Positions 41,301 to 63,000 of a DNA stretch of 64,000 nt are shown one piece after another. The position numbers and the translations under genes were made by a program. The first letter of the stretch is position 1; each line of letters starts with the position of its first letter. Source of the stretch: Oscillospiraceae bacterium (lineage in GTDB: Bacteria; Bacillota; Clostridia; Oscillospirales; Oscillospiraceae); NCBI GenBank assembly GCA_031261745.1, contig JAISJC010000153.1:1-64000 (forward strand), in the 5' to 3' direction. The notes below the pieces were generated by a model. It was not told the DNA's origin. It worked only from the letters and a program-made list of their open reading frames with translations, and ran no database searches.

Positions 41301-44300
41301 GCCGAGGTGGACCCGACGAACGAGTTGACGATGCCGGAGTTCGTCGTGTGATAGCGCGCGACGATGCCGCCGATGCGCGTGTTCCACTCACTGTCCGTTT
41401 TTGTTGCTGTCACGGTCGCCTTAATGTAGTCTGAATAGAGTTTCCCATCGGCCATTGCACCGCCCGGATCACCGTTATAGTACTTGATCTTGGTGCCGTA
41501 GCCTGTTCCCGCCGGACCGGCCTTAGTTGTCCAGTACAGTAGGTATTCCGCTCTCCACTTTACGTAGCCCGCAATACCGTAATCAGCAGTACTGTCTAAG
41601 CCGTCTCTTTGTTCGCAGTAGATTGTGGAGATTACGCTATCGCGCACGTTCGCGTCATAGACCGCCTCGGACAGACCCGTGATTCCGCCGATGTACGCGC
41701 CGCCGAGGATAAAGCTGTTTGAAACGCTTATGCTGCGCGTGTGGTGCGAGTTACTCGGCTGACCGGTCATACCGCCGACGGCCTGCCCGCCGCGCACAAA
41801 CACGTGGTCGATTACCGTCAGGTTCGCCGGATTCGTCATCGTGAACTGTGCGTAAGGATATACCGGTCTCACGGTTATGCTCGCCGCCTGCTGACCCGCG
41901 CCGACTCCGTAAGCGGGTATTCCGGTGTTGCCGGCCGCTATCGGCGCGACGGCTTCGTTCGAGGCGCGCGGTTTCTCTGTTATGTTACCGCGCCCGAACA
42001 TACCGCCGGTACGCGCCATCGTGTCGGACGTTCCGACGACAATCGCATCCTGGATGTCGTTGCCGTACTGAACCTCCGTCGCCCACGGGAGACCCGTGTG
42101 CAGATATCCGGCGAGGCCGCCGATGTCCTCGCTGCCCTGCACGAGTATCTGGTGTCCGTGCGAGTTGAGCAGCAGCGTGTTGTTCGCGTAGCCGAGCATA
42201 CCGCCCGCCATTACGTAGTTCGATATTACGGTTACGTTGTTCGCCTCGATATTCGTGAAGTTCGAGTTGCGCGAGTAACCTGCGAGGCCGCCCGTGTAGG
42301 CGTAGCCCTCAACATAGATGTCATTCAGCCAGATTTTGTTCATCGACCCGTTTACCGCGCCGAATATACCGCTCTGTTGGACGTTTGTCGCGGTGAGTGC
42401 GGTCTTTTTGATCGAAATCTTATCGAATTGCAGCTCTTTTGCAGAACCCATCAGCTTGCCGACTACGCCGACAGACCGGCCCGACGTCGCGAACGCCATC
42501 TGCTCGAAGTGCAGTTTGCTGATCTCCGCCGTGATAACGCTCACAAGGCTTCCGCCGATGTTACCGGAGCCGTCTTTATTCCCTGCGGTGGTGAGCTTAG
42601 TCCACGTACCGATCACGGTTATGCCGGAACCGAGGAAGTCCGCCGTCGTCGCTGTAATGTTCCCGCACTTGTACAGGTCTCCCTCTAAACTGACGATTGT
42701 TGCGGTCGTCAGCTGGTCCGGATTCTCCGTAAAGAAGTCGTTCAAGTCCTCCACGCTCGCGAACGATTGCTGCGCGACGTTCTGGAACGATATGAAGTTC
42801 CGGATTGTCTGCCTCACGCCCGGCGTCGATTCAAGTCCTTCAAGTCTGTTCAGCTTCAGGTCACGTCTCGGCAGTGCGCCGTCAGTGAGCTTATAGCTGC
42901 CGCCCGGCTCCGCGCCGTAACGGCTGTCATACGCGCTGCCGTAAAGTTCACTGAAATCAATGGTACCGGTGATCCTGATGTTCTCGAAGTCGTCACCGTG
43001 TCCGCCCTCCGCGACAGTCGAGAGCTTCTGCTGCCAAACGTACGCGTTGGGGATATCCAGATACGCGGGTATATCGAGGATCAGTTGTCCCTCAACATCC
43101 ACGTCCTGCACAACATTGGTAGCGACCGTGAGGTTTACGGAAGTGATTTCGTACTGGTCAAAGTACCGCTCATACGCGGTCACGTAGACCTTGATTGAGC
43201 TTATCGTCATTCCGGCTTCCGCCTGACCCGGCCTTTCGTTCGGGACAACTGCGTTTGTGGGCATAAGGGCTGTCGTAAGTCCGCTTATGGTCACGTTGTT
43301 GAGCGTCGTTCCGGTCGGGTGCTGCACCCAGATAACCGCACCTCTGTATTCGGTGACGTTGTCCGGTCGCATCGGAACGCCTTCCGTCGCAATGATTTTC
43401 GCGCTTATGCCGTCGGTCGTGCCCGGATACGGGATTTCCGCCTGTACCGGCCACCACACGCCGTTGGAGTTTTTCAGCAGCGGCATCTTCGACTCGCTGA
43501 TCTTCGTGTAGTCAAATTCGCTGCCCATCTTAATGGCGCGGTCATACGTGTTGAAGTTACGCAGGTCTGTCAGATCCAGCGGATCCGCACCTGTTCCGAT
43601 TCGGAGCATAATGGTGTCGTCAAGAAGCGTATGCTCTTTGCCGTTAATCTTCTGCCCGACCCACGCGTAGGCGTTCGATCTCGCCGTACCCTGAGTTCTG
43701 TACAGTCCGTCGCCCGCGCCTCTGTGCAGCTTCGCGTCTGGATCCAGCGGATCCGGACTGTATTCCACCCACGCCGAGGTCACGTTGCCCCACGCGAGCG
43801 AGTTCGTCGTAGGCATCGCGCCCGTACTCGTATATCCGCCGACGATTCCGCCCACGCTGTCCGCCATTGAGGTTATGTGTACGAGGTTCCACGTGTTCTG
43901 CATCGTCTGGTTTACGGCCAGTCGTCCGGCAATACCGCCGACGAGCTGATCCGAGGTGTCGATTCTGCCCTCAGCGTACATATTCAGCGACGAACCCGTG
44001 TCGGCATATCCGATAATGCCTCCGATTCCGTTGCCCTGCTTGGCACTTTGCGCAGTGATGTCAAGTCCCGTTATGTAGCTGTTGCGCAGTATGCCGGTTC
44101 TGATGTCGCCCACGAGTCCGCCGATAAAGGTGAACGCGCTCTGCGAATTTATGTTCAGTCCGACAATGGAGCTGTTCCAAATCTCGCCGTACGTCGCGTA
44201 CGACGCAAGGCCGCCCATACGCGTATCACTTGTGTACGCGCTGTTTGTGAAGGTATACGCCGTGTCGCCGCGCAGATGCACGTTATCCAGCTTGCCGCCG

Positions 44301-47300
44301 TACAGAATCTGTACGAAGCCCGTGTAAACGCTGCCGCGCGCGTCAATATGCATATCCTTCGTCATCAGGTTCGTGATTTTACCCGTGACGTAGGCGAACA
44401 GTCCGCCGCCGTGCGTCTGCGCGACTTTATTCCTGATGTTGATGTTGTCGAGCGAGTGCATTCCGATGAGTTCCATATTCGAGTTGAATATACTGCCGTC
44501 AACGTGTCCCGTGAACACGTGATAGGACGCTCCGGCGTAATGCCCGACGCGGTATTCCGGAATGTACATATTATTATTATTACTAACGCCATAGTTATCC
44601 CACGTTATATCCTCCGGCGCAGTGGGCGCAGTCGCATTCAAAACCGTTCCCGTAGAACCCGTGGTGTTGTTGCCCGCGCTTCCCGTGGTGCTGAATTTGT
44701 ATATCTGCTCATTTATGAGGTCCTCGTAATCCGTGGAATTGAGCAGCAGCGTCCGGAACGAATCCAGCGAGAAGTCAATATCCGCTTTTATGCGGTAGTT
44801 TCTGCTCGTGCGCGCCGTCGTGCCGTAGTCCGTGGCGACATAACGCACCCAGTCTTTCAGCGTGGAGATAGGCTGATAGAACTCAGCGTCCACAGGGAAG
44901 TGCTGGTTGCCGACCGGGATTTCCACAGAGCCGAGCGAACTGGCTTTCCAGCCTATGTCGTCGATGTAGTAGCGCGAGAGGAATGCGCCTCTGTCGAGGT
45001 CGTTGTCGGCAAGTCTCCGGTTGGCATTGGTCGGAATCGGCTGCGGTTCCAGCGGCTTAAACACGACTATCCAAATACGCGTCGTGCCGTCCGAGCTGTT
45101 TATCTGGCGTCGGTTGGTTCCGAAGTCCGCCGACGTCTTTCCGATAGCGGTGTACATTGCCGCCTGTTGCGCCGGGTCTCCGTTGATGCCGAGTACCGCG
45201 CTGTTGAGCGTGCGGAGTTGGGTAGGCCCACCCGCGGTTGTCTTTGCATACTCAAAGTTAATCTGCGTAATCAGTCGCGTCGAGGGGTTCTTCAACGTGA
45301 GTGCCACGACGGCGTAATCCTCCGTCTGCTGCTCAACGATTGACGACGTAACCTTAATATCCGCGCCAGGCGTCGAGTTCATCGGCAGCTGAATAAACTC
45401 CTGCGGCGGCATTGAGGTATCCATTATGACCTGCGGATAGTAACCCAATATTACCGTGTTCGCAGTGTTGAAGCCGCCTCCGAGCAGATTTTTCTGCCAG
45501 TTCTCGGTGCGCAGGGATTCGACGCCGACCTTCGTGTTATACGCGGCGTTGTAGGTGCGCGCTTCATCCGGCGAGTAGTACGAAACCTGCGTACTCATTT
45601 TACCCGCCTGCGAACCGACGCCCGGTCCGTACGCGACATTATTCTGCTTGTTCAAGTTTGTCAGATCCGCCGCATTCACCGGAAACACCGTATTCGGCAA
45701 CGACGGGTAAACAGCAGAACCGGCGTAAGCCGTCTGCAAATAAGTCGGTTCCACATCGTCACCTGAGAATCTCACGACGGGATTCGCGTACCAGACTCCG
45801 GGATAGTACCAGGCTTTGTTATAGCCGGCGTCAGCTTCCGAGGTAATCCACTCGGAGCGCAGCGGCCCTGCGGTCGTGCCGTCCGTTGTGTACTGTTGAC
45901 GCGCGTTCGCGTCAGTGAAAATCCACTGCGACTTCGACTGGCGATACGCGACCTGTCCCGTGGTGTAGCTGTCGCGCGCTATACCGTTGTTGCGACCCAC
46001 CAATGTGCCGAACTGTGTGAAGTCCGGATGAAGGGTATTGTCATAAAGCCCCAGAATGTTGATGGAGCTGTAAACCCGTTCGAGTACGCCGTTTGTGTCG
46101 TTCGTTCCTGTGATTCCGCCGACTGCGGCACCGCCTGCGGCGGCACCGCCGACCTGATACTTTGTCACCATCTGAATCGCGTAACGGCGGCCGTCCTCTT
46201 TCGGTATCATCGTCGGCGCGGCGTATACGTATCCGTCGCGTATCGTGCCGGAGCTTGTTGACGCGATAAAGCCGAAGCGATCACGCGCGTAAACCGGCTG
46301 ATTCACGCGGACGACGAAGCGTTCGATAACACCCGAATTTGCGCGAACCATTCCGCCGTAATTGTTCCATTCCTGCGTCTCCGGCGGCAGGTGCATCACC
46401 ATACCCAGATCTTCCCAATACACGCTGTCAAGCGGCGGGTGGAAGTTCACCAGATTCGAGACTGATCCCAAATCTTTTGCCGGCGGCAATGTAAATCCGT
46501 CTTTGAGTTTATATAATCTGCCCTCATAGTAAACTTTATCGCCGGCGTTGTACGTCTTAGCCGCGCTGTACCGCACGCTGTCGGCATTCGTCGGTATTGC
46601 CAGCGCGTTGGTCGCGGAAACATACGCGCGTTCAGCCATAACATCCGGATCGGTCGAGTCCTCCTGGCCTACGTTGAGCTGAATGTCGTGTATCCAGCCC
46701 AGGTTGGACCACGCAAGGCGCGACTGCTCCGTCGCGACGCCCGGATAGGCGAACATCGACGTGTTCATAACCATATTGCGGATTTCGCCGTACTGTCCGA
46801 TTACATAGATCAGATAGCCGCGTTCCGTATTGTTTGTGAAGGAGAAGCCCTGGAAATCCAACAGTCCCTGGAAGCGGTTTGCGTCACTGAATCCGCTGAT
46901 GAATTGATTTCGATCATTTGTAGACAGGAAAGCTCCGATACCGCCGGTTATGTACTTACCGTGCAGGTTTACGCTCTGCGAATTTGTGATGAATCCGAGT
47001 TCTCTGTACGTCTCGGTCAGTGCCGCGTCCGCCAGATTGTAGTTCAGCGGGTCAAGCACGAGGTCGCGCGTAATCACGAAGCGCGCGTCAAGCCCCTGAT
47101 ACGGGATTTCCGTCTTAACGCCGTTCGTAATTGTAAGCCCCACATAGCTCGGCTGAGTAATCAGCGCAAAGTCCTCAATGTCACGGATTTCGAGAACCGC
47201 CGTGTCCGTGTCAAACTCACGCGAGGACAGAATCTTCTCGTGACCGTCGATAACTACGGAGAGGTCAACCCTGTACTGGAACTTCGACGCGAGAGCCGGC

Positions 47301-50300
47301 ACAAACACCGCAAAAGCGTCTATGTACTGGTTCTTATGGTCAACGGTTTCGCGCGACGGGTTGTAGCTGTTCAGCGCGTTCAGCCAATTGTTCGATCCGG
47401 GGCTGTTCACCAGCACCATATTCGTCTGTCCGTCCGCCGTGTTCTCGTAACGCCAGACTTTTACATAGAAGACTCCGCCGCCCTCGGTATCGATCTCGTT
47501 GCGCACGTCCTCTAAGTCCACGTAGAACTTCGCCGTACTCTGCGTGGCACTCGTTACGGTTATTCCGCCGAGGTAGATGCGCCCCGAAAGACCCGCACGC
47601 GTTGCGATTGCAAACGGCGCAGCCTTCAAGTGGTTCGTTGTGTCGTCGGGAATCTGCACCAGTTCCTCGGTTGCCGTGTTATACGTATAGTTGATCAGCC
47701 CGTAGTTCGAGAAATACGTCAGCGTGTCGTAGCCCTGGTTATAGCTCGACGCGGTAAAGCTGAAATCGTAATATTGCGGTGCCAGATCAGTACTCTCTTC
47801 GAGGTTCGCGAGCGCGATGTCCCTCTTGACTACCGTGTAGCCGTTATCCTGTCTCTGCGGATAGAGCGTCTCACCGTATACGACCTTGTTGGAACTGCGG
47901 TTCGTCACCGTAAGCTGCACTTTATCCGTGCAGACCTCGTCCGGGTCGTACACGTACAGATCGTACACGTCAATGGAGTCGGACGCAACGAATTCACCCG
48001 AACGCCGCACCTCAGGAAGCCGCCGAAGCGTCTTGAAGTTGTAGCGCGACGCCTGCGTCGTCGGTGTGTATCTGTACGGAGTCGGGGTCGCGTTAATCTT
48101 GACCATCGCCGTGTAGGTGATGTCGTAATCCGTCATACTTAGGAGCTTTTCGCTCAGGTCAACGTGGAACAGTGTGTGGTCAAACGTTTTCTGCTCGTTT
48201 GCGTCTACCGCTTCGTGCGACTCATACACGCTGCCCGCATAATTCACGCGCGTGCCTGTGGGATACGCCTGACCGGAAACCCACTCAGGAATCAGCGTCC
48301 AGCCTGAACCGCCGATATCCGGTGACGAACTATTCGCCGTGCCCGTTAACACATAAATCTTACCGCTACGCGTAGTGAATTCGCCATAGGTATTGGTGAT
48401 GGTGGTAGGCCACTCAGGCAGAGCGGAAGCCACTGCCACTGTGTTAAAATTCGGGTTGATGATCGGGTACCCCGTACCTGTCATTGTCCCCAGCTTATTC
48501 CACTTCCACGCGTCGAAATACGCCTCGTCAATTATGACAAACTCACCGGGCGTCAGCGTTCCGCCGACACCGTCGTCGTTGTCGCGTGAGAATATGTACG
48601 TATAGGTCGCCGCGGGCGATTCGCCCTCACGCGGCGCGCGCGGGTCGCGCGGCGTGAAGGTTATCTTCACCTGCGAGAGCAGGTTCTGCAACAAATCGTC
48701 CGTGCGTCCGTCGTTGATCTTGAAGTCCATTATCGCGCCGTAGCCGTCCTGCGTAAGACGGAAATTCGCGTCGTCAAACACCACATCGCCCAGCGAAGAG
48801 AGCGGCGCGGTTATGAACGGGAACTCGCCGATAACCTGATTCACGTGGACAAACGGAGAGTTGTCGAGCGTGTCCGCAATGTCGTAATCCGCGTAGACTA
48901 CCGCCTTCAACGCTTTGCCTATCGGCAGGTCAAGGTAGGTGAGCGAATCGCTGAACACGCCTGTTATCGCGGTTACGGGATTACCCGAATCAGTGCCTCC
49001 GGGCGACGGCATCACCAGCGGGAACTGGTTTGCGTTCGTCCCCAAGCCCACGCTTCCGCGGCGCATCGTCGTAAAGATAACCGGATTGCCGGCTGTGGAC
49101 ATATCGACGATCTCGATGCGGTATACCCACGATTTTGCCGCGTTCGGGTTGGTTATGTTGACGTTCAGCGTGAATTCCGCGACCTTGTTCACCGCCATAT
49201 TCATATCCGCTTTCGGCGGTGATTTACACGTGGCAATGGTTCCGGCAATCGGGAATGACCCGCCCGGATTGGTGTACTTATGGTTTGACGAATCTTCGCC
49301 TATTATCTCCGTGCCGTGGACGTCGAAGAATCGCAGCGTGTATTTATAAGTCGTACTCGCGTCAAAAATTGCAGCGGACAAAAAGCTCAGCGGATGCGTC
49401 GCATCGCCGTTGAGGACCGCGGTCCTGTCCGCGTCATTGAGCGTGACGGATCGTTTCCACGTCGGATCCGAGGCTTTTTCAAAGTCGATCTGTATGCGTC
49501 TCGTGTACAGAACCGTGTAGTCCACATCCGCTTTCGTGAATCCGTTGGTCGGCGTCAGATCGGCGACAAAATTCTCAAAGCGAACCTTGTCGGGATACAG
49601 TTGACCGTTAGCCAAGCTGACCACTACGGGCGCAAGGACTTCACGTTTTTCAGTCGTTATCTTCTGCGTCGCGAAATATGAGTGTTCAATGGCTTTGCGG
49701 CCGTCCGGATATTGCGTAGTAGGCTCGTTCATATAAATGAAGTGCGACGTAACCCAGTATGTCGTATCCGGAACCAGCGGGTCGAGGCGCACCTCGCCCG
49801 AACCGTAAATATACACACGGCGGACAACCCTCGCTATGGGATCCGTGGTGGGCGTCGGATGAATGTCGGGGTCCGTGCTGTCGTGCCAGTTGCTGTCGTT
49901 TGCATACTGACCGTCGGTGCCTGAAACGTATTCGCCGGGGTCGTGATCCCAGATGACGTATGTAATGCCCTTGGTTATTCTGCCCGCAGGGTCATTGATC
50001 GTGATGTTCCCGTGGAGCGAATATGTTTTTGCCGTGAGTGCCGTCGCCGTAACCGTCGGTTTCACGTAATTCGGGTCAACCGGATCGGACGGAGGTGACG
50101 GAGGCGGCGTCGCCGGTTCCGGCAGAATCGGCAGCGTAACCGTAAATTCCTGCTCGCTGAACTGACGCGTCTGCACAACGCCCTTGTCGTCGGTGAACTT
50201 GTATTCGCCGTAGACCTTGTAGGTCCCGCCGACATACAGTCCGTTGACGGTTATTGTCTCATATACGTATGCCAAGTCGCGCCCTGCCGGCAGGCTCACT

Positions 50301-51454
50301 GTAATCGTTTGCAGGAGTGAACCCGAAGAGTTGAGCAAATAAATCTTAATATCGCCCGTCAGAAGCAGCTTTTTGTCGATTACGGACAGGCGCGCACTCG
50401 CCTTGTAGAGTCCGCCCTCCGGCTCGTTGTAGTTGACGCGCATCTTTGACAGGCGCAGCGTCGGCTCTCTGTACCCAAGCTCCGGCTCTTCGTCGGACGC
50501 CGGCAAAGCCGGCGCGCCCGGCTTCGGATCATTATTGCCCGCGGCACCCGGAATCTTCGTTCCGCTGCTGCTGCCCGGTTCGTCCTCGATAGGCGCAACT
50601 CCGCCGCCGTCAACTGTTGACGGCGTCTTTGAGGGCGGCACCGGCGTCGGAATAATCGGCACGACGCTGTTGCCGTCAAGGTTGTCGTAATCGCCCTTTA
50701 AGTCGTCGTCTATTTTATCGTCTTCATCGACATACGGAAGCTCCACCGGAGGATTTCCCAGAAGTCCGAGCCGGCGCAGATAGTCATAATAGTTATAGGA
50801 TTTGCCTTCAAAAGATACGGTCGATTCCTCGTCGAGTCCGGTTATGCGGTGGAATACAAACACTCCGCCCGTGCGTCCCGTCTCGACCTCGTATGCGTAG
50901 TAGCTGAGGCTCTCCGGCGTGTGGTACAGCATACTGTTAAGCGGGATTTCAATCGTTCCGGTGTCTCCGCCGCGCACAACCATATCCTTGACGTTGGAGA
51001 AGATATTCGCTTTCATACGCACAAGGATGAAGTCGTCGGGGTCCGCCTGCGTCATATTGTCGTAGTTAAATGAGTGACCCGCACTGACAAGAAGTCCGTA
51101 GTAACTGTCAAGTCTCTGGAACTCATCGTTTATCAGCTTTGCCGAGTCGCTGATGTTCATAAGCGCGGTCGCGCCGTTGACGTACATAGGAATATCCGCG
51201 TCAATCCGGTACTTCTTCTCGCCGGCATACAGTTTTCCGGCGCGCTCATACAGCATATCGACAGCGTTGAAATGCAGCGGCACGAGAACCTCGTCCTTTT
51301 CACGTGGGTTCTCGCTTTTCAGGTTTGAAATCCAGTCTTCATCTTCAAACGTAAGTGCCTCGAACCCAATTTCACCAATGGCAATGAGCCGGTAAAATTG
51401 GGCAAAAAGCAGCACCGCTATAATAACTGCGATAATTGCGACGATCTTTTTCAT
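38372..51454 (-). CDS. Giant (~4360 aa) cell-surface protein: N-terminal TM anchor/signal, FN3/Ig-like region, chitin-binding (ChtBD3)-like modules, GLUG repeats, acidic Gly/Asp-rich linker, C-terminal LPKSG-TM-KRRK sorting-like signal
   Basis: Single uninterrupted ORF; GGIIGYAD.., VGGIAGRL.., VGGYVGYM.. GLUG-like repeats; 'WVSGQAYPTGTRVNYAGSVYES', 'AAKTYNAGDKVYYEGRLYKLKDG...VYWEDLG'; C-terminus RVLPKSGIYAIGAVSLTIVVLLVVIFDKRRKTW. Confidence 0.85.
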   Translation of the reverse strand: MKKIVAIIAVIIAVLLFAQFYRLIAIGEIGFEALTFEDEDWISNLKSENPREKDEVLVPLHFNAVDMLYERAGKLYAGEKKYRIDADIPMYVNGATALMNISDSAKLINDEFQRLDSYYGLLVSAGHSFNYDNMTQADPDDFILVRMKANIFSNVKDMVVRGGDTGTIEIPLNSMLYHTPESLSYYAYEVETGRTGGVFVFHRITGLDEESTVSFEGKSYNYYDYLRRLGLLGNPPVELPYVDEDDKIDDDLKGDYDNLDGNSVVPIIPTPVPPSKTPSTVDGGGVAPIEDEPGSSSGTKIPGAAGNNDPKPGAPALPASDEEPELGYREPTLRLSKMRVNYNEPEGGLYKASARLSVIDKKLLLTGDIKIYLLNSSGSLLQTITVSLPAGRDLAYVYETITVNGLYVGGTYKVYGEYKFTDDKGVVQTRQFSEQEFTVTLPILPEPATPPPSPPSDPVDPNYVKPTVTATALTAKTYSLHGNITINDPAGRITKGITYVIWDHDPGEYVSGTDGQYANDSNWHDSTDPDIHPTPTTDPIARVVRRVYIYGSGEVRLDPLVPDTTYWVTSHFIYMNEPTTQYPDGRKAIEHSYFATQKITTEKREVLAPVVVSLANGQLYPDKVRFENFVADLTPTNGFTKADVDYTVLYTRRIQIDFEKASDPTWKRSVTLNDADRTAVLNGDATHPLSFLSAAIFDASTTYKYTLRFFDVHGTEIIGEDSSNHKYTNPGGSFPIAGTIATCKSPPKADMNMAVNKVAEFTLNVNITNPNAAKSWVYRIEIVDMSTAGNPVIFTTMRRGSVGLGTNANQFPLVMPSPGGTDSGNPVTAITGVFSDSLTYLDLPIGKALKAVVYADYDIADTLDNSPFVHVNQVIGEFPFITAPLSSLGDVVFDDANFRLTQDGYGAIMDFKINDGRTDDLLQNLLSQVKITFTPRDPRAPREGESPAATYTYIFSRDNDDGVGGTLTPGEFVIIDEAYFDAWKWNKLGTMTGTGYPIINPNFNTVAVASALPEWPTTITNTYGEFTTRSGKIYVLTGTANSSSPDIGGSGWTLIPEWVSGQAYPTGTRVNYAGSVYESHEAVDANEQKTFDHTLFHVDLSEKLLSMTDYDITYTAMVKINATPTPYRYTPTTQASRYNFKTLRRLPEVRRSGEFVASDSIDVYDLYVYDPDEVCTDKVQLTVTNRSSNKVVYGETLYPQRQDNGYTVVKRDIALANLEESTDLAPQYYDFSFTASSYNQGYDTLTYFSNYGLINYTYNTATEELVQIPDDTTNHLKAAPFAIATRAGLSGRIYLGGITVTSATQSTAKFYVDLEDVRNEIDTEGGGVFYVKVWRYENTADGQTNMVLVNSPGSNNWLNALNSYNPSRETVDHKNQYIDAFAVFVPALASKFQYRVDLSVVIDGHEKILSSREFDTDTAVLEIRDIEDFALITQPSYVGLTITNGVKTEIPYQGLDARFVITRDLVLDPLNYNLADAALTETYRELGFITNSQSVNLHGKYITGGIGAFLSTNDRNQFISGFSDANRFQGLLDFQGFSFTNNTERGYLIYVIGQYGEIRNMVMNTSMFAYPGVATEQSRLAWSNLGWIHDIQLNVGQEDSTDPDVMAERAYVSATNALAIPTNADSVRYSAAKTYNAGDKVYYEGRLYKLKDGFTLPPAKDLGSVSNLVNFHPPLDSVYWEDLGMVMHLPPETQEWNNYGGMVRANSGVIERFVVRVNQPVYARDRFGFIASTSSGTIRDGYVYAAPTMIPKEDGRRYAIQMVTKYQVGGAAAGGAAVGGITGTNDTNGVLERVYSSINILGLYDNTLHPDFTQFGTLVGRNNGIARDSYTTGQVAYRQSKSQWIFTDANARQQYTTDGTTAGPLRSEWITSEADAGYNKAWYYPGVWYANPVVRFSGDDVEPTYLQTAYAGSAVYPSLPNTVFPVNAADLTNLNKQNNVAYGPGVGSQAGKMSTQVSYYSPDEARTYNAAYNTKVGVESLRTENWQKNLLGGGFNTANTVILGYYPQVIMDTSMPPQEFIQLPMNSTPGADIKVTSSIVEQQTEDYAVVALTLKNPSTRLITQINFEYAKTTAGGPTQLRTLNSAVLGINGDPAQQAAMYTAIGKTSADFGTNRRQINSSDGTTRIWIVVFKPLEPQPIPTNANRRLADNDLDRGAFLSRYYIDDIGWKASSLGSVEIPVGNQHFPVDAEFYQPISTLKDWVRYVATDYGTTARTSRNYRIKADIDFSLDSFRTLLLNSTDYEDLINEQIYKFSTTGSAGNNTTGSTGTVLNATAPTAPEDITWDNYGVSNNNNMYIPEYRVGHYAGASYHVFTGHVDGSIFNSNMELIGMHSLDNINIRNKVAQTHGGGLFAYVTGKITNLMTKDMHIDARGSVYTGFVQILYGGKLDNVHLRGDTAYTFTNSAYTSDTRMGGLASYATYGEIWNSSIVGLNINSQSAFTFIGGLVGDIRTGILRNSYITGLDITAQSAKQGNGIGGIIGYADTGSSLNMYAEGRIDTSDQLVGGIAGRLAVNQTMQNTWNLVHITSMADSVGGIVGGYTSTGAMPTTNSLAWGNVTSAWVEYSPDPLDPDAKLHRGAGDGLYRTQGTARSNAYAWVGQKINGKEHTLLDDTIMLRIGTGADPLDLTDLRNFNTYDRAIKMGSEFDYTKISESKMPLLKNSNGVWWPVQAEIPYPGTTDGISAKIIATEGVPMRPDNVTEYRGAVIWVQHPTGTTLNNVTISGLTTALMPTNAVVPNERPGQAEAGMTISSIKVYVTAYERYFDQYEITSVNLTVATNVVQDVDVEGQLILDIPAYLDIPNAYVWQQKLSTVAEGGHGDDFENIRITGTIDFSELYGSAYDSRYGAEPGGSYKLTDGALPRRDLKLNRLEGLESTPGVRQTIRNFISFQNVAQQSFASVEDLNDFFTENPDQLTTATIVSLEGDLYKCGNITATTADFLGSGITVIGTWTKLTTAGNKDGSGNIGGSLVSVITAEISKLHFEQMAFATSGRSVGVVGKLMGSAKELQFDKISIKKTALTATNVQQSGIFGAVNGSMNKIWLNDIYVEGYAYTGGLAGYSRNSNFTNIEANNVTVISNYVMAGGMLGYANNTLLLNSHGHQILVQGSEDIGGLAGYLHTGLPWATEVQYGNDIQDAIVVGTSDTMARTGGMFGRGNITEKPRASNEAVAPIAAGNTGIPAYGVGAGQQAASITVRPVYPYAQFTMTNPANLTVIDHVFVRGGQAVGGMTGQPSNSHHTRSISVSNSFILGGAYIGGITGLSEAVYDANVRDSVISTIYCEQRDGLDSTADYGIAGYVKWRAEYLLYWTTKAGPAGTGYGTKIKYYNGDPGGAMADGKLYSDYIKATVTATKTDSEWNTRIGGIVARYHTTNSGIVNSFVGSTSADRVGGIIGHAYTYATTSHSVLNTVVRGRDYVGGYVGYMENAGTNINAINADVIGRNFVGGVAGYFDQNQTYYGTRTSYIKGTYFVGTVEAKGFIMNKAASVETGQFYAGGIAGSQGSYKLSSTATYRSNSNVVAATVTVPNSGGHAAFLYQRANGDSSDTAAIPGKDQYVYVGSRLIYSGGGATQTVAGPSADGYTIPKTVSTDNLKDPKWWNGSATWTTADSTAFYNYYNRSNDAATGTQAYQYFRYTVPSAGALPINNGYMPYLTKYGTSGHSTGAFVMQHVEGRPQSGSVETYATAGVLTYHSVSDSTYSGGIPIPTGTVGAPTIQIRMMSLMPTELPLPVPTFYAAGGASGLNIDFDYVNPDTGFSVKYDGEAPFAEWNVDQRTFTLDYKFNKALVITVTDGKKEQKYRVDPEDVQHTIMVWGDNYYYGNEFGVHEKDGRLLSGAFANLRDGQGITKEGSLYDIVTGKLLEERVISGLRQEVSPRYSFEYAGYKLDVFGTYTLSTPLNGGEPSEIEGMLMLVKNGYLKPLDASLPVNYDELVYDIVGGEEYLTFLEESGRVSDAVGNPIALPKDFRNYDIVEMTNTLNTDLPYVMVRYDTGVVVCFNYLTGERVNLNVIDGDMSLLKYAKGFFGSPSSVMNSLADGYLEMKPMREVLMVYPLEEEMLEAAKSEAGTAEIKGTNEDGLPDGGAEVDKDAAGANDGTGGNDGAGGNIKGSSNLPGGTNINTDDATGSGKDDKNGTAPEKGQLSDSGAGGSTAEKPSGADGTGTDSEGKGAGNGTANPDGTNANAEKPDTDTDKGVKPDDADKDDKKPESGAEGENGAGEGGGDADLANPNGEKPEPGESVAVDTDKSGPEDGAESGEEGGPKGAGLDKPETKASPTYTMAYNNETGKYEFYDVARLLAGDTLPAIEATEENTALAAQLLDNYIRAEAGTNRVLPKSGIYAIGAVSLTIVVLLVVIFDKRRKTW

Positions 51455-51510
51455 AGTATCCCCCAAATAATTCTGTCAAGCTACTTCTCTGACGGCGCAC
51501 CGCCCGATGT

Positions 51511-52278
51511 TCAGCCCGCTTTAAGCAGGCTGCCCTTTTCGAGCGAGTTGAGTACCGCAGGATTCGTAAACAGCAACATTTCCTGACCGTTCCAGTACAG
51601 GATATCCTTCGACAGGTCAATGCTGTATCCGTCCATATGCGCCATAACACGCGCCATATCGGTGTCGAGAAGCATTCCCTCTTCCGCGTCCCTTGGGTAA
51701 ACCTCTATGCGGACGTTGTAGATAACCACCATATAAGACATAGCCTCAATATGGATCTGCTCATTCGCTCCGTCACCCCACACAATATCGGCAGGCTCTA
51801 AGAAAATATATGTATCTCTGCCGTCAAAGAGGAATCCGCTGTCCATCATTGTCTCTTCTTTACCTGCGCGAACAGTGTACTCTCCCGCGTCGGTCTCTGT
51901 GACTGTCGAGAAGTACTCCACGCGTCCGGTCTTGGAAAACGCCGGTATAATTGCCGACATATTCTCCGGCAAAATGAACTTATGCACGTTCTCACAGACC
52001 ACGGGCAGCGCGTCGATCGGGAACGGATTCTCCGGCGTCGTAACCTGGTCTTCGAGTATGTTCCGTGTCTTTCCGCGCACAATCCGCGTCTTGCCGGCCT
52101 CGTGGTTGAATTTAATGCCCACGTCGTAGTGATACGTGTTCACGTCAAACTCGTGAATACCGAGGCTCCGTATGTACAACAAAACTAACGCCACGCCTAT
52201 CAGGGCGACGACGACAATCAGCACTATAAGAAAAATTCTGCGCTTGCGCTTATTGATATTTCCGCTCAAACAAATCAC
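51511..52278 (-). CDS. Single-pass membrane protein of unknown function, 255 aa, in the F1-like locus
   Basis: NINKRKRRIFLIVLIVVVALIGVALVLLYIRSLG TM followed by a beta-rich ectodomain; overlaps the preceding gene by 29 nt. Confidence 0.75.
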   Translation of the reverse strand: MICLSGNINKRKRRIFLIVLIVVVALIGVALVLLYIRSLGIHEFDVNTYHYDVGIKFNHEAGKTRIVRGKTRNILEDQVTTPENPFPIDALPVVCENVHKFILPENMSAIIPAFSKTGRVEYFSTVTETDAGEYTVRAGKEETMMDSGFLFDGRDTYIFLEPADIVWGDGANEQIHIEAMSYMVVIYNVRIEVYPRDAEEGMLLDTDMARVMAHMDGYSIDLSKDILYWNGQEMLLFTNPAVLNSLEKGSLLKAG

Positions 52279-52780
52279 CCAGATCTTTTATGATAAAATA
52301 CAGGCTGTATACAGAGACGAAAATCGACAACAGAATATAAATCAGTAAAATCGACTTGTCACTGCGAACCTCATTTAGGAATCCCCACATTACGTTTGTT
52401 GCAAGCAACGCCGCGCCCATCGCCGCGCCGTTAATGACGTCAAACAGGATCTTCATCGGCTGCCCGCGATACGCCAGCGCACCGATGATGACAAAACCCG
52501 CAAAACACGTGATGAATGCCACATCCATCCGCAGATGGAATACGGCGACTGAGACGATAAGCGTCTCTCTTAAAATCGACTGTGTAAGCCACAGCACATC
52601 CCTGTTCCGCATTCCGAACAGCATTCCCAGAACTTTCATTCGCTTCTGTCCCCAGTTCACATTGCCGGTCAACAGGATTATGAACGCGAAAATAATCACG
52701 CCGACACCCACTGCAAACCACAGGAACCAGGACATATCGAACACCGTGGAAATCATTTGACTTCCGATTTCATCTATCAC
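52250..52780 (-). CDS. Polytopic membrane protein of unknown function, 176 aa, in the F1-like locus
   Basis: About 4-5 hydrophobic helices (FLWFAVGVGVIIFAFIILLTG, VAFITCFAGFVIIGALAY, ILLIYILLSIFVSVYSLYFII). Confidence 0.75.
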   Translation of the reverse strand: MIDEIGSQMISTVFDMSWFLWFAVGVGVIIFAFIILLTGNVNWGQKRMKVLGMLFGMRNRDVLWLTQSILRETLIVSVAVFHLRMDVAFITCFAGFVIIGALAYRGQPMKILFDVINGAAMGAALLATNVMWGFLNEVRSDKSILLIYILLSIFVSVYSLYFIIKDLGDLFERKYQ

Positions 52781-52810: not shown

Positions 52811-53203
52811 TCATCGTGCGGCGGCGCGCTTCTCGGCCTCTTCCTCTTCCTCAGGCGTCACAAGCCCCTGCTCGTTCTGAATCAGGAAGAACACGTTATG
52901 CACGTGGCACAAAAAGCCTTTAACACCCTTTATCGAGTAGTAAACGTCGCGTCCGATAAATTCCACGTCTCCGTCCACCATACCCACGACGGGCGTATAG
53001 TCTTCAAGAATGGTGAGGCTGCTCTTTCTGTTCTTCACGCGCACCATACTTATGTTCTTGAAGATTTCAAGCCCGTTTTCAAAGCTCGACACCTGTGCCT
53101 GTATGCGTCCTACTCTCGCACGCGCGTACGCCTCAAGCTCCTTTTCGGACTGAGAGGTTTCGACGCTGACGGCCATAGTGCTTTTTATTTCTTTCCTGGC
53201 CAT
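52811..53203 (-). CDS. F1 epsilon-subunit-like protein (beta-sandwich only), 130 aa
   Basis: 'MVRVKNRKSSLTILEDYTPVVGMVDGDVEFIGRDVYYSIKGVKGFLCHVHNVFFLI' follows the AtpC N-terminal pattern (GxLxILxxHxPxVxxLxxGxVxI); located just after beta. Confidence 0.55.
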   Translation of the reverse strand: MARKEIKSTMAVSVETSQSEKELEAYARARVGRIQAQVSSFENGLEIFKNISMVRVKNRKSSLTILEDYTPVVGMVDGDVEFIGRDVYYSIKGVKGFLCHVHNVFFLIQNEQGLVTPEEEEEAEKRAAAR

Positions 53204-53220: not shown

Positions 53221-55395
<2,175 letters not shown>

Positions 55396-55399
<4 letters not shown>

Positions 55400-56721
55400 A
55401 TCTCGTTCTCCGCAAATTCCTTAAACCGCTCCACCATTCCGTCCGGATCAAGCGGCGAGAAACGGTATTGCTTCATACGTTCAAGCATTTCCTTGCCCAT
55501 AAGCAGCTTTGTGCGCATCTCAACGCTCATCTCGTCGATATTGGCAAGCTCGAATATCTCCTTTGTTTCGAGGTAGGAGAGCAGCTCGCGCCGCACAGAG
55601 GTTCCGAGCTTCTTCATACTCGGAATCTGAACCTGTCCGCCGAGACGCGACACCGAAAGTCCGAAGTTGATTGCGGGCTTCTGCCCTTTTTCAAAGAACT
55701 TCGTCGAGGTGACGATCTGTCCGTCCGTGATGGATATGATGTTTGTAACGACGTAATCCGTGATGTCTCCGCCGCGCGTCTCAACAATCGGCAGAATGGT
55801 GATGGAACCGCCGTCCTTGTGCTGGCATCCGAGTTCAAGCATACTCGCGTGCGCGAAGAAGATGTCCGGCGGGAACGCGTCGCGCCCCGGAACCTTTCCG
55901 GCGAGAAGGCTGATTTCGCGGTACACGTTCGCGTGCTGCGTCAGGTCGTCGATTACGACGAGGACGTCGCTTCCGCGCGCCATAAACTGCGTCGCGAGTG
56001 ACAGCGCGACCTGCGGGGTTATGTACATCATCGGCGCGCAGTCCTCCTGGAACGCCGCGTAGATGATTGTGTATTCCATCGCGCCGCGGTTGAGAAGCTC
56101 GTTGTAAACTTCTTTTACCGTCTTTTTCGTCTTGCCGAGCGCGACATAGATGCAGACTACATCCTGTCCGCGCTGGTTGGCGATCGCGTCCAGTCCCATT
56201 TGCGTTTTGCCGGTTTTCTTGTCGCCGAGGATCAGCTGGCGTTGTCCGCGTCCGATCGGATACATCAGGTCGATGCCGCTGATGCCCGTGTACAGCGGAC
56301 GGTTGACCGTCGTGCGGTCCATAATCGGAATATTCGTCGGAACGGCGGGAATCTCCACCAGATCCTTGAATTTGTTACCCGTGAATTTGTCCTCGCCGAA
56401 GATATCGACGATATGCCCGACGAAATCCGTGGAAACCATCGCGGAAAACAGCTTTCCGCTCGACGTCACCTCGTCCCCCACGAAAACCGCGGCGACGCGC
56501 TTGACAAGCTCGATTGTTACGGAGCTTTTTCCAATGTGGGTGATGTACCCTTCCGCCTTGTCACCGATGTAGACGCGCTCGAAATAGAATCCGTCTTCGA
56601 GTCCGGCAACTTCGAGAATGTAGTTCGATACGCGGACAACCTTACCCACCGCATACACATTCTGGCCAGACTTTATCGCGTCAATCTTTGAACTTATTAC
56701 GTCCTGTATTTTATCGCTCAT
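55396..56721 (-). CDS. F1 ATPase alpha-subunit-like protein (shortened C-terminus, 441 aa)
   Basis: PIGRGQRQLILGDKKTGKTQMGLDAI, VLVVIDDLTQHANVYREISLLAGKVPGRDAFPPDIFFAHASMLE, INFGLSVSRLGGQVQ. Confidence 0.92.
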
Positions 56722-57494
56722 CCGCTTATCTCCCTACTCCTTATTGAAAAGTCGTGCATCCTTCCGCCGGCAATCACATATACGCCCTCGCAAACGCTTG
56801 GGTCAAACTGCGTTACAACATTGCCGCCGTATACACTCGCTAAATCGCTGGGGTTTCCCGTCCGGACAACGACATCCGGAGAATCGGTAAAACTTCTGAC
56901 GTTCAGCCAGTCGAAGAACGCGATGATATCGCCCGTCGGTTCCTCTTCGAGGTAGCTGTCCACCAGTTTTGCAGGTTTGCCTTTGAAGCTCCCTTTGATA
57001 ATGGCAAACGCTTCGTCCCTGTCGAGCAGAGAGAGTTGGTAGCGCAGTTCAATCGAAATCGCTTCCAAAATATCCTGCGCGGCATTCCCGCTCGCTTTGG
57101 CTGCGTCCGTCAGCGCGACCACGGACTTAACGCACGCGCCCTTGTCAACGGTAAATTGGTTTCTCAGTGCCTGGTAGCCCGCCGTGAAATCCTTGTCCAA
57201 GTACCGCCCCTTCAACAGCGTGAAGAAGTTTGACGTACCCGCCTTAGTCTCACCGGGCGATTGTGCGGCCCATTGCGCCTCCTCGGCGACCTTTGCCTGC
57301 TCCGTCTCAATCTGCTTTAAGAGTGCTTTAAGTTCAAGCTCTTTGTTTTCCAACAGCTCGTCATAGACATTTGCTTCGTGTATCATATTGAGCTTTGAGA
57401 ACCTGCCGAGCCGCCTTATCGCGCCTTTAAGCATATAGAAGAACAGGGTGCTCATAAGAATCAGTATCAACGCAACCGCGATAAATACTCCCAT
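56718..57494 (-). CDS. b/delta-like peripheral stalk protein (N-terminal TM, helical stalk, delta-like C-terminus), 258 aa
   Basis: MGVFIAVALILILMSTLFFYML then Glu/Lys-rich helix; C-terminus 'GVYVIAGGRMHDFSIRSREI' resembles the AtpH C-terminus. Confidence 0.62.
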   Translation of the reverse strand: MGVFIAVALILILMSTLFFYMLKGAIRRLGRFSKLNMIHEANVYDELLENKELELKALLKQIETEQAKVAEEAQWAAQSPGETKAGTSNFFTLLKGRYLDKDFTAGYQALRNQFTVDKGACVKSVVALTDAAKASGNAAQDILEAISIELRYQLSLLDRDEAFAIIKGSFKGKPAKLVDSYLEEEPTGDIIAFFDWLNVRSFTDSPDVVVRTGNPSDLASVYGGNVVTQFDPSVCEGVYVIAGGRMHDFSIRSREISG

Positions 57495-57517: not shown

Positions 57518-57826
<309 letters not shown>

Positions 57827-57834
57827 TTATTGCG

Positions 57835-60000
57835 TTAGGCTTTCAGTCTGTCTTTGATTTTGCCGAGTATTCCCGCGGTGCCCGAACTTCCGAGGCCTTC
57901 TCCGCCGCCGCCGCTTCCGTCACCCGTAGGTGTCGGGTCCGGATCTGTCGTCGGGGTCGGGGTCGGGTCCGGCGTAGGCGTGGGCGTCGGATCCGGTGTC
58001 GGGGTCGGTGTTTCCGTCGGTGTCGCCGTAGGTGTCGGTGTCGCGGTCGGCGTCTCCGTAGGTGTTGTTGTCGGCGTCGCTGACGGCGTTTCCGTCGGCG
58101 TCGGGGTCGGTGTAGCAGTCGGCGTCTCCGTCGGCGTCGGGGTCGGTGTTTCTGTCGGCGTAGGCGTGGGTGTCGGCGTCGTAGATGTTCCGCCGCCGCT
58201 GCCTCCGCTGCCGCCCTCAACCTGCACATCGTCAAGCGAATTTCCGGAGGTTATTGCGTCCATAACGCTGAACGGTGTAACAGCGAGTGCGCCTCTCGAT
58301 GATGTGACGTTTGAATACTCAATGTACGCATATTCCAAAGTAACCGGTTTCGTCGTCTGTGTTTCTCCGTCATAATATGTGCAGTTTATCAAGCTAAGTC
58401 TGTGTACTAAACCGCCCTTAAGGTTCGGAGTTTCAACACCGCCAGGGTTCGGATAATAGAACATTCCAGAAAAACCCTGCGACGATGTGGCGTTTGAGAT
58501 GTTAATTTGCTCACTGAGACGCGGGAATCCAGTAGCCGGATTAGTAGCAAGCGCACTATGCTGTCCGTCAATCGTAAGCTCAATCCTCGCACCGTCGAGT
58601 TTGTACTCCGGATCCAGCTTTACGTTGTAGTAAACCTGATTCGCCGTCAGTAACTCGACCGAAATGCTGACCGCAATCGCGTTCGTGCGCACGTGTACGA
58701 AGTCTTCAAGCTCGATAGCATCCGACGCGCCCTCTTCAAGCGAGTTGGTCATCATCTTGATCGTATATTCCGCCGCGGGATCCAAATCCGGAATTCTTAT
58801 GTAGTGTCCGTCCGGATTCAGGTCGATGCGTCCGGGTGTACCCGGTGTGGCTCCGAACTTCTCGTACTCAACGTAAATCTCGGCGTATCCGTAGCCGGGG
58901 TCAACGATTGTGTACTCAACATCAATATAGTTCACGCCCGGTTTGAGCGTAAGGAACATCGCGTTGCGGCGCATCGTAATCTTCGGGACTTTCGCGGTGC
59001 TGCCCGCGGCTCCGTCGCCGCCGGGTCCGCCGTTACCGCCCGAACCGCCCGAACCGCCGTCTCCGCCGGCTCCGCCGGCTCCGCCTTCGCCGCCGACGCC
59101 GCCGTTACCGCCGATGCCGCCGATGCCGCCAAGTCCGCCCTTGCCGCCGAGTCCGCCTTCGCCGCCGTTACCGCCGTTGCCGCCGGTTCCGCCGGTTCCG
59201 CCGAGTCCGCCGTTACCGCCGCGGATTATGATCGTCTCGTCAGAGCCGACAGAATCCGGGGTCTCACCGTCCGTACCGGTTCCGGTGGCCCGGCTGTCTC
59301 CGCTTGTGGTTCCGCCGGCCTGCTGCTCCAACAGCGACATACCCATCGACGTTGTGCCGAGGATTTTTGTCAGGTCAATAGACTTGCCGCCCGTCTCAAT
59401 CTTCTCGCCGGAGATGTAGAACTTTACATCGCCGGTTTGAAGCGTCATCGGCTGCAACGTCTTTAAGTTCACCTGGTCGTTGAGCAGCTGTGCGTTGCCG
59501 AGGCGGTCAAGCACGATATACAGGAAGTTGTGAGCCGAAAACAGCCCCGTCTCATCCGTAATCGTACCGCCGACCATAACGTAGCGTCTGTCCGCGAGCT
59601 TATAGAACGCGGGCGTCTCATAGCTCGTAATCTCGGTCTCGCCGCGCAGCGAGTCCACGCCGCCGTTGTCGAACACGCGGTAGCCGCCGCCGAACAGTTT
59701 CAGCACGCTCGCGCCCGTCTCATACGCGACCGGCTTGCTGCCGAGCGGGTATTCGCTCCCGCCCTCCGCGAAGTACAGGTAATAGCCCCCGTCGTCGCCC
59801 TCGCGGATCAGGCCGTCCGCCGCCGTTGTTATCGGCTGATTGTCCTGATCGTACACGATGCTGTTTGCCGCGAGCTGATAGATCATCCGTTTCTGTTCTC
59901 CGACCTGGATAACCATCATCAACAGCATAACAAGGTTCAACAGCACCGTACCGCCGAAGACGGCGAAGCCTACAACTGCCTTTTTGTTAAACTTTCTCAT
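57835..60000 (-). CDS. 721-aa N-terminally anchored surface protein with Gly-Gly-X and Thr-Pro repeats
   Basis: N-term TM '[23 protein letters not shown]'; [14 protein letters not shown]... ; [22 protein letters not shown]... near the C-terminus. Confidence 0.85.
57925..58190 (-). repeat. Coding Thr-Pro-rich degenerate short tandem repeat
   Basis: Repeated gtcggcgt/gtcggggt units on + strand, translating to TPTPTETPT on the minus strand. Confidence 0.85.
59015..59222 (-). repeat. Coding Gly-Gly-X tandem triplet repeat
   Basis: ccgccg... array translating on the minus strand to [26 protein letters not shown]...GGPGGDG. Confidence 0.88.
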
Positions 60001-60052: not shown

Positions 60053-63000
60053 TCAAGTTACGACGAAGTTCGTTGATACACTGCCCACAAGCACGCCTCC
60101 GGTATAGAATCGTGCGGATATGATATACACGCCTGGGTTACTGATACTTGCGGGTACTTGCAGCGAGTAACTGTCTCCCGCCCCCGGTATCAGGTTGGCC
60201 GTGGTGAGCGGCATTGTGCCGGAACCGACCGACCCAAGACTTGCCTGACTCTGGACGTCGTACTGGATTTCGGTAACGCCGGTAATATTCGCGCTGTCAG
60301 TGAACGTCAGCAATACGTTACCGCTGATGTTCGACTGGCTCGCCGTGACCGTTCCTACCGAGATACCGGACTCGTTCGTGGTCGTCGCGCGTTGCTCGTG
60401 AACCACGTAGGTGTTGTTACTGTATTCGAATGCGGTTGGAGGAAGTTCCGTCACGTCCGCCGGCGATGTCGGATCAATGTTCGCCGTGTTTGTGATGGCG
60501 TAGAATCGGATGGTGTACTCCGTACTCTTTTCGAGTCCGCTGAACTTCGGCTCGATAAAGTTCCCGTACAGTTCCGTAAACACGTGGTCCGCAATGCCGC
60601 CGCCGCTTCCGGTGTAATTAACACCGGAGAGTGACATCGTCAGATTCGGATCATTTGTTACGTCGCTGATGTTACCGATGCTGTCTTTCTTAAAGACACG
60701 GATTTTGTACGCGCCGATATTGCCGGTGTTGGGATTGCTTTCAACATCAACAACCGTGCGGTCCCTGTCAACCGTCGAAACCTTGAAGTCAAGGTGGTAA
60801 TTAAAGACATATGGATCGCCACCGGTTCCGGCACCGGTTCTGGTTACGCTTGGGACATACGTCGTGGTGTAGTTCGGTCCGATGAGTGCCGGCATCGTGA
60901 ACATAAAGTCTCTCGTTCCGAGTGGCGTTCCGGTTCCGGCGGCATTCGCGTAACCCGTAACAGTAATCTTGTACTGTGTTCCGGATTTCCAGAAGTCTTT
61001 GCTGTCATTCATAAAGTTGTTGCCGGGCTTAAAGTCGAAGTACGTGAATTTAGTGCCTGCCGGTGTTTTATGGTCTCCGACAAACAAGTTCGCATCTTCA
61101 AGAGCCTGATTGGGTATTACCGTACCGACGGAAGGTCCGCCCGGAATAGAAGTGCCGTTTGCACCCGGTCCCACTACCGTTATCTCGTAAAACAGGTAGT
61201 AGTTCATAATCGAACTGAGTTCGATCTCCATTTGGATAACTCTGTCGCGGTAGTTCGTCGGGATATACGTCACCTTATTCAGAACCGGATCATTGTTACC
61301 GACGGGTCCGATCGTGAGTTCTTTCAGCGTCGTGAAGAGGTACTTGTTTTCGTTCTGTCCGCCTTCCGGATTAGTACTCGGCACCTTGTCTATTGACGGG
61401 TTGTAGAGCGACAGTGGTCTATACTGCATAACCGGCGATGCAGTAGCGTAACCGCCCCAGAACGACACCCAGTACTGTTTTCCGCCCGACTGCAGTCCGG
61501 TACCGCCGTTTAATTCGAGGTTGTAAGCACCGTTTGCACCGGTACTGTCCAGAACTATTTGGTATGACCTCGTTTTTGTGTCGGTGTTGTTGCCATCGGG
61601 GAGGACATACGAATCAAGGTCGATTGCAATCGTATACCACTCGTTAAGCGCATTTCCGTATGCTTTATAGCCATTGTGGTACACCCACCCGGCACCGGCA
61701 ATCGGCCCACCGACCTGCGTGTTGCTGCTGCCGCCGGAATTGCCGCCCCACAGTTTGAGGTAGAGGTATCTCTTGCTGTCGCTGGATGGCGTGGTGCTGC
61801 CGGTGCCTGATCCCGGAGCCGACTCCGTGTCCAGCTGCTGCCAGTTTTTCAGGTCGAAGTTGATTGTAACGTCCGTGTATCCGGGGGTGATACCCGTGAT
61901 CGTGATCTCCGGCGCGGAGCCGCTGTGGGTCACCTGATTGGTAGTGTCGTACGTCAACGGTATTACCGACAGCTTCTTGAACGCGACGTAATCGTTTGTG
62001 CCTTGTAATTTCAGACCGTGTTGGTCGATGCCCTCAATTTTCAGCGTGGTCGTGCGTTGATTCTCTACGGTGATCTGCTGGTACGTCGTCAGCATATTTT
62101 CAAAAGTTATCTCGCTGTTTGTTGCTGAAAGCGTTTTCAGCGAGTTGTCTTGCTCTAATCCCGATATCTTGAACACGCCTCCGGCAAGCCAGTTGGTTCT
62201 GTTCAGCGTACCAAGTTGCGACGCGTTCTGTATCACCGTCGGTGTGCGGTAGAAGTTATTGACATCAGTACCGTTATGTGAAATAAGATCATCGTAATTG
62301 GGGGCAGTGACATTGGCGGTGCGGATCGCGAAGTAACCGCTCGGCGCGCCTACGGCATTTTCAATACCGACGTCGCCCTCGTCGTAAATGATTTCAACAG
62401 TAACGGAGTAGTTAGTGCTGTCCTCCGCCTTACCTCCCGGCAACTGGGCGTACGGCAGATAGTACGGTATAATAGTTCCTGCACTCGGCATCGGTACCGC
62501 AAGGATATACTTTGCCGTACTCGCGCCCTCGTAAATCGGATTCGTGTCAGTCCAGTTTGCGTCTGTAAAGGTTCCTCCCACTTTCGTCACGTGGAGAACA
62601 ATCGCGGCGACCCTCGCCATTTGCGCCCTTGCCCCGATCTCGCCGTAAGTGGCGTCAAAGCCGCTCAGTGCCACCTTGAAGCGGTTTGCGCTGAACTCGT
62701 CCGTGAACGTGTATCTGACGCCGGGGTTTGAGGTCGGGTCACCGACTGGCAAAGCCAGCAGCTTTGTCCTGGTGAATGCCGGCGCGACGGGGCTTCCCGT
62801 ATTACCGGATCCCCACGACTGATACGCTTCAAAGCCCTTGTGGAACAGCGGTATTGACGGCTCTGTCGTTTCCGGCGGATTCAGCTTGTTATAGACTGAA
62901 TACTTAATTCCGGCTTCTAAGTCAAAACCGTTATTGATCATAAATTCGTTTCCCGCAGTTGTCGGGTTTGTCGCGATCGCTAACTCCTTCGTGAAGTCAT

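What the first reader, a model, noticed from the sequence alone, without database searches (positions are those of the whole stretch)
52250..52780. No subunit a; a 176-aa polytopic membrane protein as candidate stator or force-transmission component
Seen: no ORF in the cluster resembles AtpB (no long multi-TM protein with the conserved Arg helix). Instead an unfamiliar protein with several hydrophobic helices follows epsilon. Inference: a new membrane 'X0' part replaces the proton-channel subunit and connects the ring or stalk to the surface proteins.
Basis: partly seen in the sequence, partly recalled or inferred. Interest (0 to 1): 0.72.

Follow-up and report, generated by a model that had tools for sequence, protein, structure and literature searches.

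The report
Rotary ATPase with deleted ion path
Gut and environmental Firmicutes carry an undescribed cousin of ATP synthase that keeps the rotating parts but has lost the ion-carrying residues, and this small membrane protein stands where the proton-channel subunit should be and is physically tied to surface proteins, so the machine probably uses ATP to move something on the cell surface instead of pumping ions.

Summary
Confirmed: a real 176-aa, five-helix membrane protein (X, 52250-52780, minus strand) follows epsilon, and there is no subunit a in the window, on the rest of the contig (to 70690), or in any related locus. X is not a stray ORF: 45 loci were found, 43 of them in Clostridia, Bacilli and Coriobacteriales, with the order giant / p721-like / c / b-delta-like / alpha / gamma / beta / epsilon / X / p255 / giant (order varies in Bacilli); X follows epsilon in 41 of 42 testable loci. 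The decisive extra fact: the co-encoded c subunit is highly conserved yet has no ion-binding carboxylate in any of 41 copies; eight cluster-bearing MAGs have no detectable subunit a at all. In nine loci X is fused to p255, a one-TM protein with an all-beta domain. X has no sequence match to AtpB; its confident model has the subunit-a helix order and its best PDB hit is Bacillus subunit a, but not significantly, and the essential Arg is absent. Best reading: an F-type rotary ATPase with the ion path deleted from rotor and stator, X in the place of subunit a, coupling ATP-driven rotation to giant surface proteins. Closest known: mycoplasma F1-like X0 ATPases. Mechanism is inferred.

The parts
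52250..52780 (-). X: 176-aa five-TM membrane protein in the place of subunit a
   Evidence: ORF; SD; family of 32 unfused members; AF2 model
51511..52278 (-). p255: one N-terminal TM plus all-beta domain outside the membrane; fused to X in nine relatives
52811..53203 (-). epsilon-like (beta-domain only, no C-terminal helices)
   Evidence: position and length; collinear but weak profile match E 0.013
53221..54612 (-). beta subunit, catalytic motifs intact
   Evidence: NCBIfam atpD 3.8e-146; motifs
54605..55399 (-). gamma subunit (divergent)
   Evidence: Pfam PF00231 2e-16
55396..56721 (-). alpha subunit, short C-terminus, Arg finger kept
   Evidence: Pfam PF00006 1.9e-69; motifs; tree
56718..57494 (-). 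b-delta-like peripheral stalk: N-terminal TM, likely coiled coil, weak OSCP C-terminal motif
57518..57763 (-). c-like rotor subunit without the ion-binding carboxylate
   Evidence: PF00137 3.6e-9 and all 24 members; carboxylate missing
57835..60000 (-). p721: one N-terminal TM, Gly-rich and Thr-Pro-rich surface protein
60053..64000 (-). part of a 2482-aa surface protein (runs to contig position 67501), N-terminal TM, collagen-like stretch
38372..51466 (-). 4364-aa surface protein, N-terminal TM and C-terminal LPKSG plus TM, two CBM5/12 stretches

Best explanation
X is the membrane part of the stator of an F-type rotary ATPase from which the ion path has been removed. Shown: alpha, beta and gamma with intact catalytic motifs; a c subunit that keeps the ring-packing glycines and the conserved polar loop but has no carboxylate; no subunit a; X in a fixed place and sometimes one chain with the surface protein p255. 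Inferred: ATP hydrolysis turns gamma-epsilon and the c ring; X with the b-delta-like stalk holds the stator beside the ring, as subunit a does; since no ion can be carried, the rotation does mechanical work, passed through X-p255 and the single-TM neighbours (p721-like, giants) to very large extracellular proteins. Origin (about even odds): X is either a stripped descendant of subunit a or an unrelated replacement.
For: Conserved operon with X after epsilon in 41 of 42 loci. No carboxylate in 41 of 41 c proteins; the aligned column holds T, A, S or M, and 40 of 41 have no charged residue or His anywhere in TM2 (HMMER alignment to Acetobacterium c subunits agrees). No subunit a in the loci; 8 of 30 cluster-bearing genomes have none at all, so it is not borrowed there. 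X-p255 fusion in nine loci. X topology by positive-inside rule N-out/C-in; helix order TM1, short amphipathic, hairpin, two long helices, as in subunit a (PS3 structure PMC6377231); best PDB hit is PS3 subunit a and a second F-o entry is fifth. ATPase motifs kept: GER(S/T)REG 43/43, alpha SVSR 42/42.
Against: No significant sequence or fold match of X to subunit a; the fused-form model does not hit it either. X is poorly conserved, no invariant residue. One locus (L048) lacks X after epsilon. Epsilon and b-delta assignments are weak. No experiment shows rotation, assembly or surface location. The eight genomes without subunit a are draft MAGs, so absence could be partly incompleteness.
Confidence: 0.6

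Rival explanations
1. X is an unrelated new membrane protein that took over the stator or transmission role; the likeness to subunit a is helical-bundle coincidence. (This differs from the best explanation in the origin of X, not in its role.)
For: No profile similarity to AtpB while a split-AtpB control scores 99.9%; Foldseek E above 1; no conserved Arg, subunit-a motif absent.
Against: Same helix order and topology, same slot in an otherwise subunit-for-subunit F-type set, subunit a is the top PDB hit out of 350,542 chains.
Confidence: 0.35
2. X is an AtpI-like helper that assembles the c ring and is not a lasting part of the machine.
For: Small polytopic protein in an atp-type operon; AtpI proteins are short multi-TM proteins of such operons (own knowledge).
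Against: No AtpI Pfam match in any of 32 members; fusion to the surface protein p255 in nine loci argues for a permanent structural part.
Confidence: 0.12
3. X is a fast-evolving but working proton-channel subunit a, and the complex is an ion pump.
For: Subunit-a-like topology; Arg or Lys at position 71 in 18 of 32 members.
Against: Position 71 is Asn, Ser or other in the rest and lies in helix 3, not helix 5; no Arg in the helix-5 core in the Clostridia; the c subunit has no carboxylate in any member.
Confidence: 0.04
4. X is an ion-driven stator of the MotA/ExbB/TolQ/GldL kind that adds ion-driven torque.
Against: No Pfam match to these families, none in the listed Foldseek matches, no conserved acidic residue deep inside a membrane helix.
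Confidence: 0.03

Closest known systems
Mycoplasma Type 3 F1-like X0 ATPase (partner of MIB-MIP; PMC12994834, PMC3369863)
   Same: F1-like alpha, beta, gamma, epsilon next to surface proteins; no subunit a; membrane sector of unknown proteins; proposed to push on surface proteins with ATP
   Different: Mycoplasma clusters have a 12-TM protein, a small soluble protein and a large signal-peptide/2-TM protein, and no c subunit is described; here there is a true c homologue, a b-delta-like protein and the 5-TM X. X does not match the 12-TM protein. Both papers treat the system as mycoplasma-specific or mycoplasma-born.
Mycoplasma mobile Type 2 G1-ATPase gliding motor (PMC11864180)
   Same: F1-derived motor proposed to drive surface legs; its alpha is among the PDB matches of the window alpha
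   Different: Twin dimeric motor with a beta N-terminal extension and phosphoglycerate kinase; no c subunit is described for it
Bacterial F1Fo ATP synthase, Bacillus PS3 (PMC6377231)
   Same: Same subunit set apart from a; c with the glycine motif and polar loop; X with the subunit-a helix order
   Different: No carboxylate in c, no Arg or subunit-a motif in X, giant surface proteins in the operon
N-type ATPase (alternate F1F0)
   Same: A second F-type operon beside the housekeeping one
   Different: N-ATPases keep a working ion ring (own knowledge); the window proteins score far below the NCBIfam cut-offs for the alternate family

Membership tests
F1Fo ATP synthase subunit a (AtpB) | Match to PF00119 or an AtpB profile | tested here: not met
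F1Fo ATP synthase subunit a (AtpB) | Essential Arg in helix 5 with R-L-x-G-N motif | tested here: not met
   canonical AtpB has it invariant
F1Fo ATP synthase subunit a (AtpB) | Helix order TM1, amphipathic, hairpin, two long c-ring helices, N-out/C-in | tested here: inconclusive
   predicted order agrees; fold match not significant
F1Fo ATP synthase (whole complex) | c subunit with membrane carboxylate | tested here: not met
   0 of 41
F1Fo ATP synthase (whole complex) | Catalytic alpha3-beta3-gamma head with intact motifs | tested here: met
   (motifs; assembly itself not testable)
Mycoplasma F1-like X0 (Type 2/3) | Seven-gene set with 12-TM protein, small soluble protein and 2-TM surface protein | tested here: not met
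Mycoplasma F1-like X0 (Type 2/3) | Alpha/beta outside the F1Fo clade, in one clade with types 2/3 | tested here: inconclusive
   cluster alphas and M. agassizii type 2/3 alphas lie on one side of the F1Fo group (98/99), but the tree is unrooted and the branches are long
MotA/ExbB/TolQ/GldL stators | Fold or profile match | tested here: not met
AtpI | Profile match to ATP-synt_I | tested here: not met

The most novel reading that the evidence does not exclude
A third use of the rotary ATPase: an ATP-driven rotor with its own c ring, in which both the ring carboxylate and the channel subunit's Arg have been lost, that turns or pulls giant extracellular proteins of walled Firmicutes; it would be a transmembrane mechanical motor powered by ATP with no ion flow, and possibly kin to the mycoplasma gliding and antibody-release ATPases.
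Probability: 0.35. Interest if true: 0.95.

Novelty: new variant of a known kind. Interest (0 to 1): 0.84.

Why it matters
F1-derived machines that do not pump ions were described only from mycoplasmas, where the membrane sector is unrecognisable. Here is a spread-out Firmicute version in which the parts can still be named (c ring, stalk, a stand-in for subunit a), in walled bacteria including one cultured isolate, Kineothrix alysoides. It makes two open questions testable: can a c ring turn and transmit force without carrying ions, and where did the mycoplasma gliding and MIB-MIP ATPases come from.

Tried and rejected
Family search with X alone and order search with gamma found only the window's own genome: X and gamma diverge too fast; the alpha fragment found the relatives. 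Short second alphas looked like relatives but lie in ordinary F1Fo operons. Genetic code 4, used in the first listing, was wrong here; table 11 fits. X against the mycoplasma 12-TM protein: nothing. Fold of the X-p255 fusion: confident model, no significant PDB relative. Alignment A6, mixing X, p255 and fused rows, misaligned X onto p255 and was not used. Profile search of X in a 388-genome sample of the class: two more convincing members and three fragmentary weak hits not counted. Rooting the alpha tree to test kinship with mycoplasma types 2/3 was not attempted because of long branches.

Full report
OBSERVATION. The ORF is real: 176 codons at 52250-52780, minus strand, table 11, GTG start with AAGGAGG upstream, 30 nt after the epsilon-like gene and overlapping the next ORF. 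The operon reads, in transcription order, 177-aa lipoprotein-like (67536-68069 of the contig), 2482-aa surface protein, p721, c-like, b-delta-like, alpha, gamma, beta, epsilon-like, X, p255, 4364-aa surface protein. Genes overlap or lie within 75 nt. The contig ends at 70690 with FeoB (named by eye from its sequence); nothing like subunit a lies beyond the window. The genome's only AtpB is on contig C73 beside a canonical alpha.

RELATIVES. X and gamma searched alone found nothing. A 162-residue piece of alpha, chosen to avoid words shared with canonical alpha, found 45 loci: Oscillospiraceae, Family XIII, Peptococcaceae, Lachnospiraceae, Bacilli, Erysipelotrichaceae and Coriobacteriales MAGs, the cultured Kineothrix alysoides, and two Mycoplasmopsis agassizii loci at 47%. 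Gene order is kept over this range; in several Bacilli gamma comes after X. X, or an X-p255 fusion, directly follows epsilon in 41 of 42 loci where that spot is covered; L048 is the exception. Two of the relatives, L044 and L045, lie in genomes of the window's own genus (same AtpB positions), so the cluster is not a binning accident. In a 388-genome sample of the class only three genomes have a convincing X: widespread but rare.

THE ION PATH IS GONE. All c proteins keep the GxGxGxG stretch and an almost invariant A-E-x-x-G-R-N-P-E-x-K loop, and are c homologues by Pfam (24 of 24) and by PDB profile search. The membrane carboxylate is missing in every one: in the column of the E. coli Asp (E. 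coli sequence recalled from memory for this alignment) the residues are T 18, A 14, S 8, M 1, and 40 of 41 have no D, E, K, R or H anywhere in TM2 (the exception is a C-terminal Asp); an independent HMMER alignment to Acetobacterium c subunits shifts the register by one and gives the same answer. Subunit a is absent from all loci. In 22 of 30 genomes checked a canonical subunit a exists elsewhere, but eight MAGs of the Bacilli side have none, so X0 does not depend on borrowing it, with the caveat that these are draft genomes. The head is intact: GER(S/T)REG in 43/43 beta, GGAGVGKT in 40/43, SVSR in 42/42 alpha.

WHAT X IS. Thirty-two unfused X proteins align over their length at 14-54% identity to the window protein with no invariant residue. 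None has a consistent Pfam match and a profile search of PDB sequences finds nothing. AlphaFold2 gives a confident model (pLDDT 87.8, pTM 0.79): helices 2-37, 43-54, 59-81, 87-103, 108-137, 142-175. With positive charges at 45-60, 103-110 and the C-terminus, the topology is N-out, C-in. This is the helix order of subunit a: TM1, an amphipathic helix, a hairpin, and two long helices that in F1Fo lie against the c ring (PMC6377231, and own knowledge). The best of 350,542 PDB chains is subunit a of Bacillus PS3, and another F-o entry is fifth, but E is 1.1 and TM-score 0.36-0.44. Profile comparison with AtpB is negative (prob 0.2-0.4% against 99.9% for a split-AtpB control). Position 71 (Arg in the window) is Arg or Lys in 18 of 32 and Asn in most Bacilli, and it lies in helix 3, not helix 5. 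So membership in the AtpB family fails on sequence and on the Arg; common descent stays possible.

LINK TO THE SURFACE. In nine Lachnospiraceae-type loci X (without TM1) and p255 are one protein of about 400 aa (hhalign X to fused N-part 93%, E 3e-7). The model of the fusion has the X helices, one further TM and an all-beta domain with no significant PDB relative. p255, p721 and the upstream giant have related N-terminal domains (hhalign 78% for p255-p721, 93% for p255-giant, 96% for p721-giant), so several one-TM proteins of the operon probably present the same kind of domain just outside the membrane. Both complete downstream giants (window 4364 aa, Kineothrix 3663 aa) have a TM at each end; the window one ends in an LPKSG-TM-KRRK signal and carries CBM5/12 stretches.

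MECHANISM. Shown: the parts list, the missing carboxylate, the missing subunit a, the fusion. Inferred: ATP hydrolysis rotates gamma-epsilon-c; X and the b-delta-like protein are the stator; rotation or torsion is passed to the outside, either through X-p255 on the stator side or through one of the single-TM proteins on the rotor side, and acts on the giant surface proteins. Which side moves is not decided by any evidence here.

COMPARISON. The nearest described machines are the mycoplasma type 2 (gliding) and type 3 (MIB-MIP) F1-like ATPases (PMC3369863, PMC11864180, PMC12994834). Those papers place the origin inside mycoplasmas; no paper found here mentions Firmicute relatives (the library holds open-licence papers only). 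In the alpha tree the Firmicute cluster is one clade (100/100) with a long stem; M. agassizii type 2/3 alphas fall outside F1Fo with it, while its type 1 alpha groups with F1Fo. Because the tree is unrooted and these branches are long, sisterhood is a lead, not a result. Their membrane sectors differ: no c subunit and a 12-TM protein in mycoplasmas.

LIMITS. Epsilon-like and b-delta-like labels are supported by position, size, topology and weak matches. No expression, localisation or biochemical data exist. The prevalence figure is from one sample of one class.

Noticed in passing
57518-57763: The c-like subunit lacks the ion-binding carboxylate in every member of the family while its loop and glycine motif are almost invariant.
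   Followed up: yes
L064-L070, L076, L081: X and p255 are fused into one protein of about 400 aa that lacks the first TM of X.
   Followed up: yes
38372-51466: 4364-aa protein with N-terminal TM, C-terminal LPKSG-TM-KRRK sorting-like signal, GG(I/L/V)(A/T)G repeats and CBM5/12 stretches.
   Followed up: partly
60053-64000 (to contig 67501): 2482-aa protein with a collagen-like Gly-rich stretch near residue 284-337; p721 beside it also has long Gly-rich and Thr-Pro-rich runs.
   Followed up: partly
L067, L069, L070: One rumen Lachnospiraceae MAG (Tb.RUG.141) carries three separate copies of the cluster.
   Followed up: no
L048: A Coriobacteriales locus where the cluster stops after epsilon, with no X or p255 there.
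   Followed up: partly
L085, L117, L118: Mycoplasmopsis agassizii has three F1-like clusters besides F1Fo; each has a 12-13 TM protein of 521-568 aa, and L085 is followed by MIB-like and MIP-like genes.
   Followed up: partly
56718-57494 and relatives: Nine of 27 b-delta-like proteins match DUF4446 weakly (best 6.4e-5).
   Followed up: no
L071, L073, L075, L087: In several Bacilli the cluster is followed by small one-TM proteins of 190-270 aa where the downstream giant would be expected.
   Followed up: no
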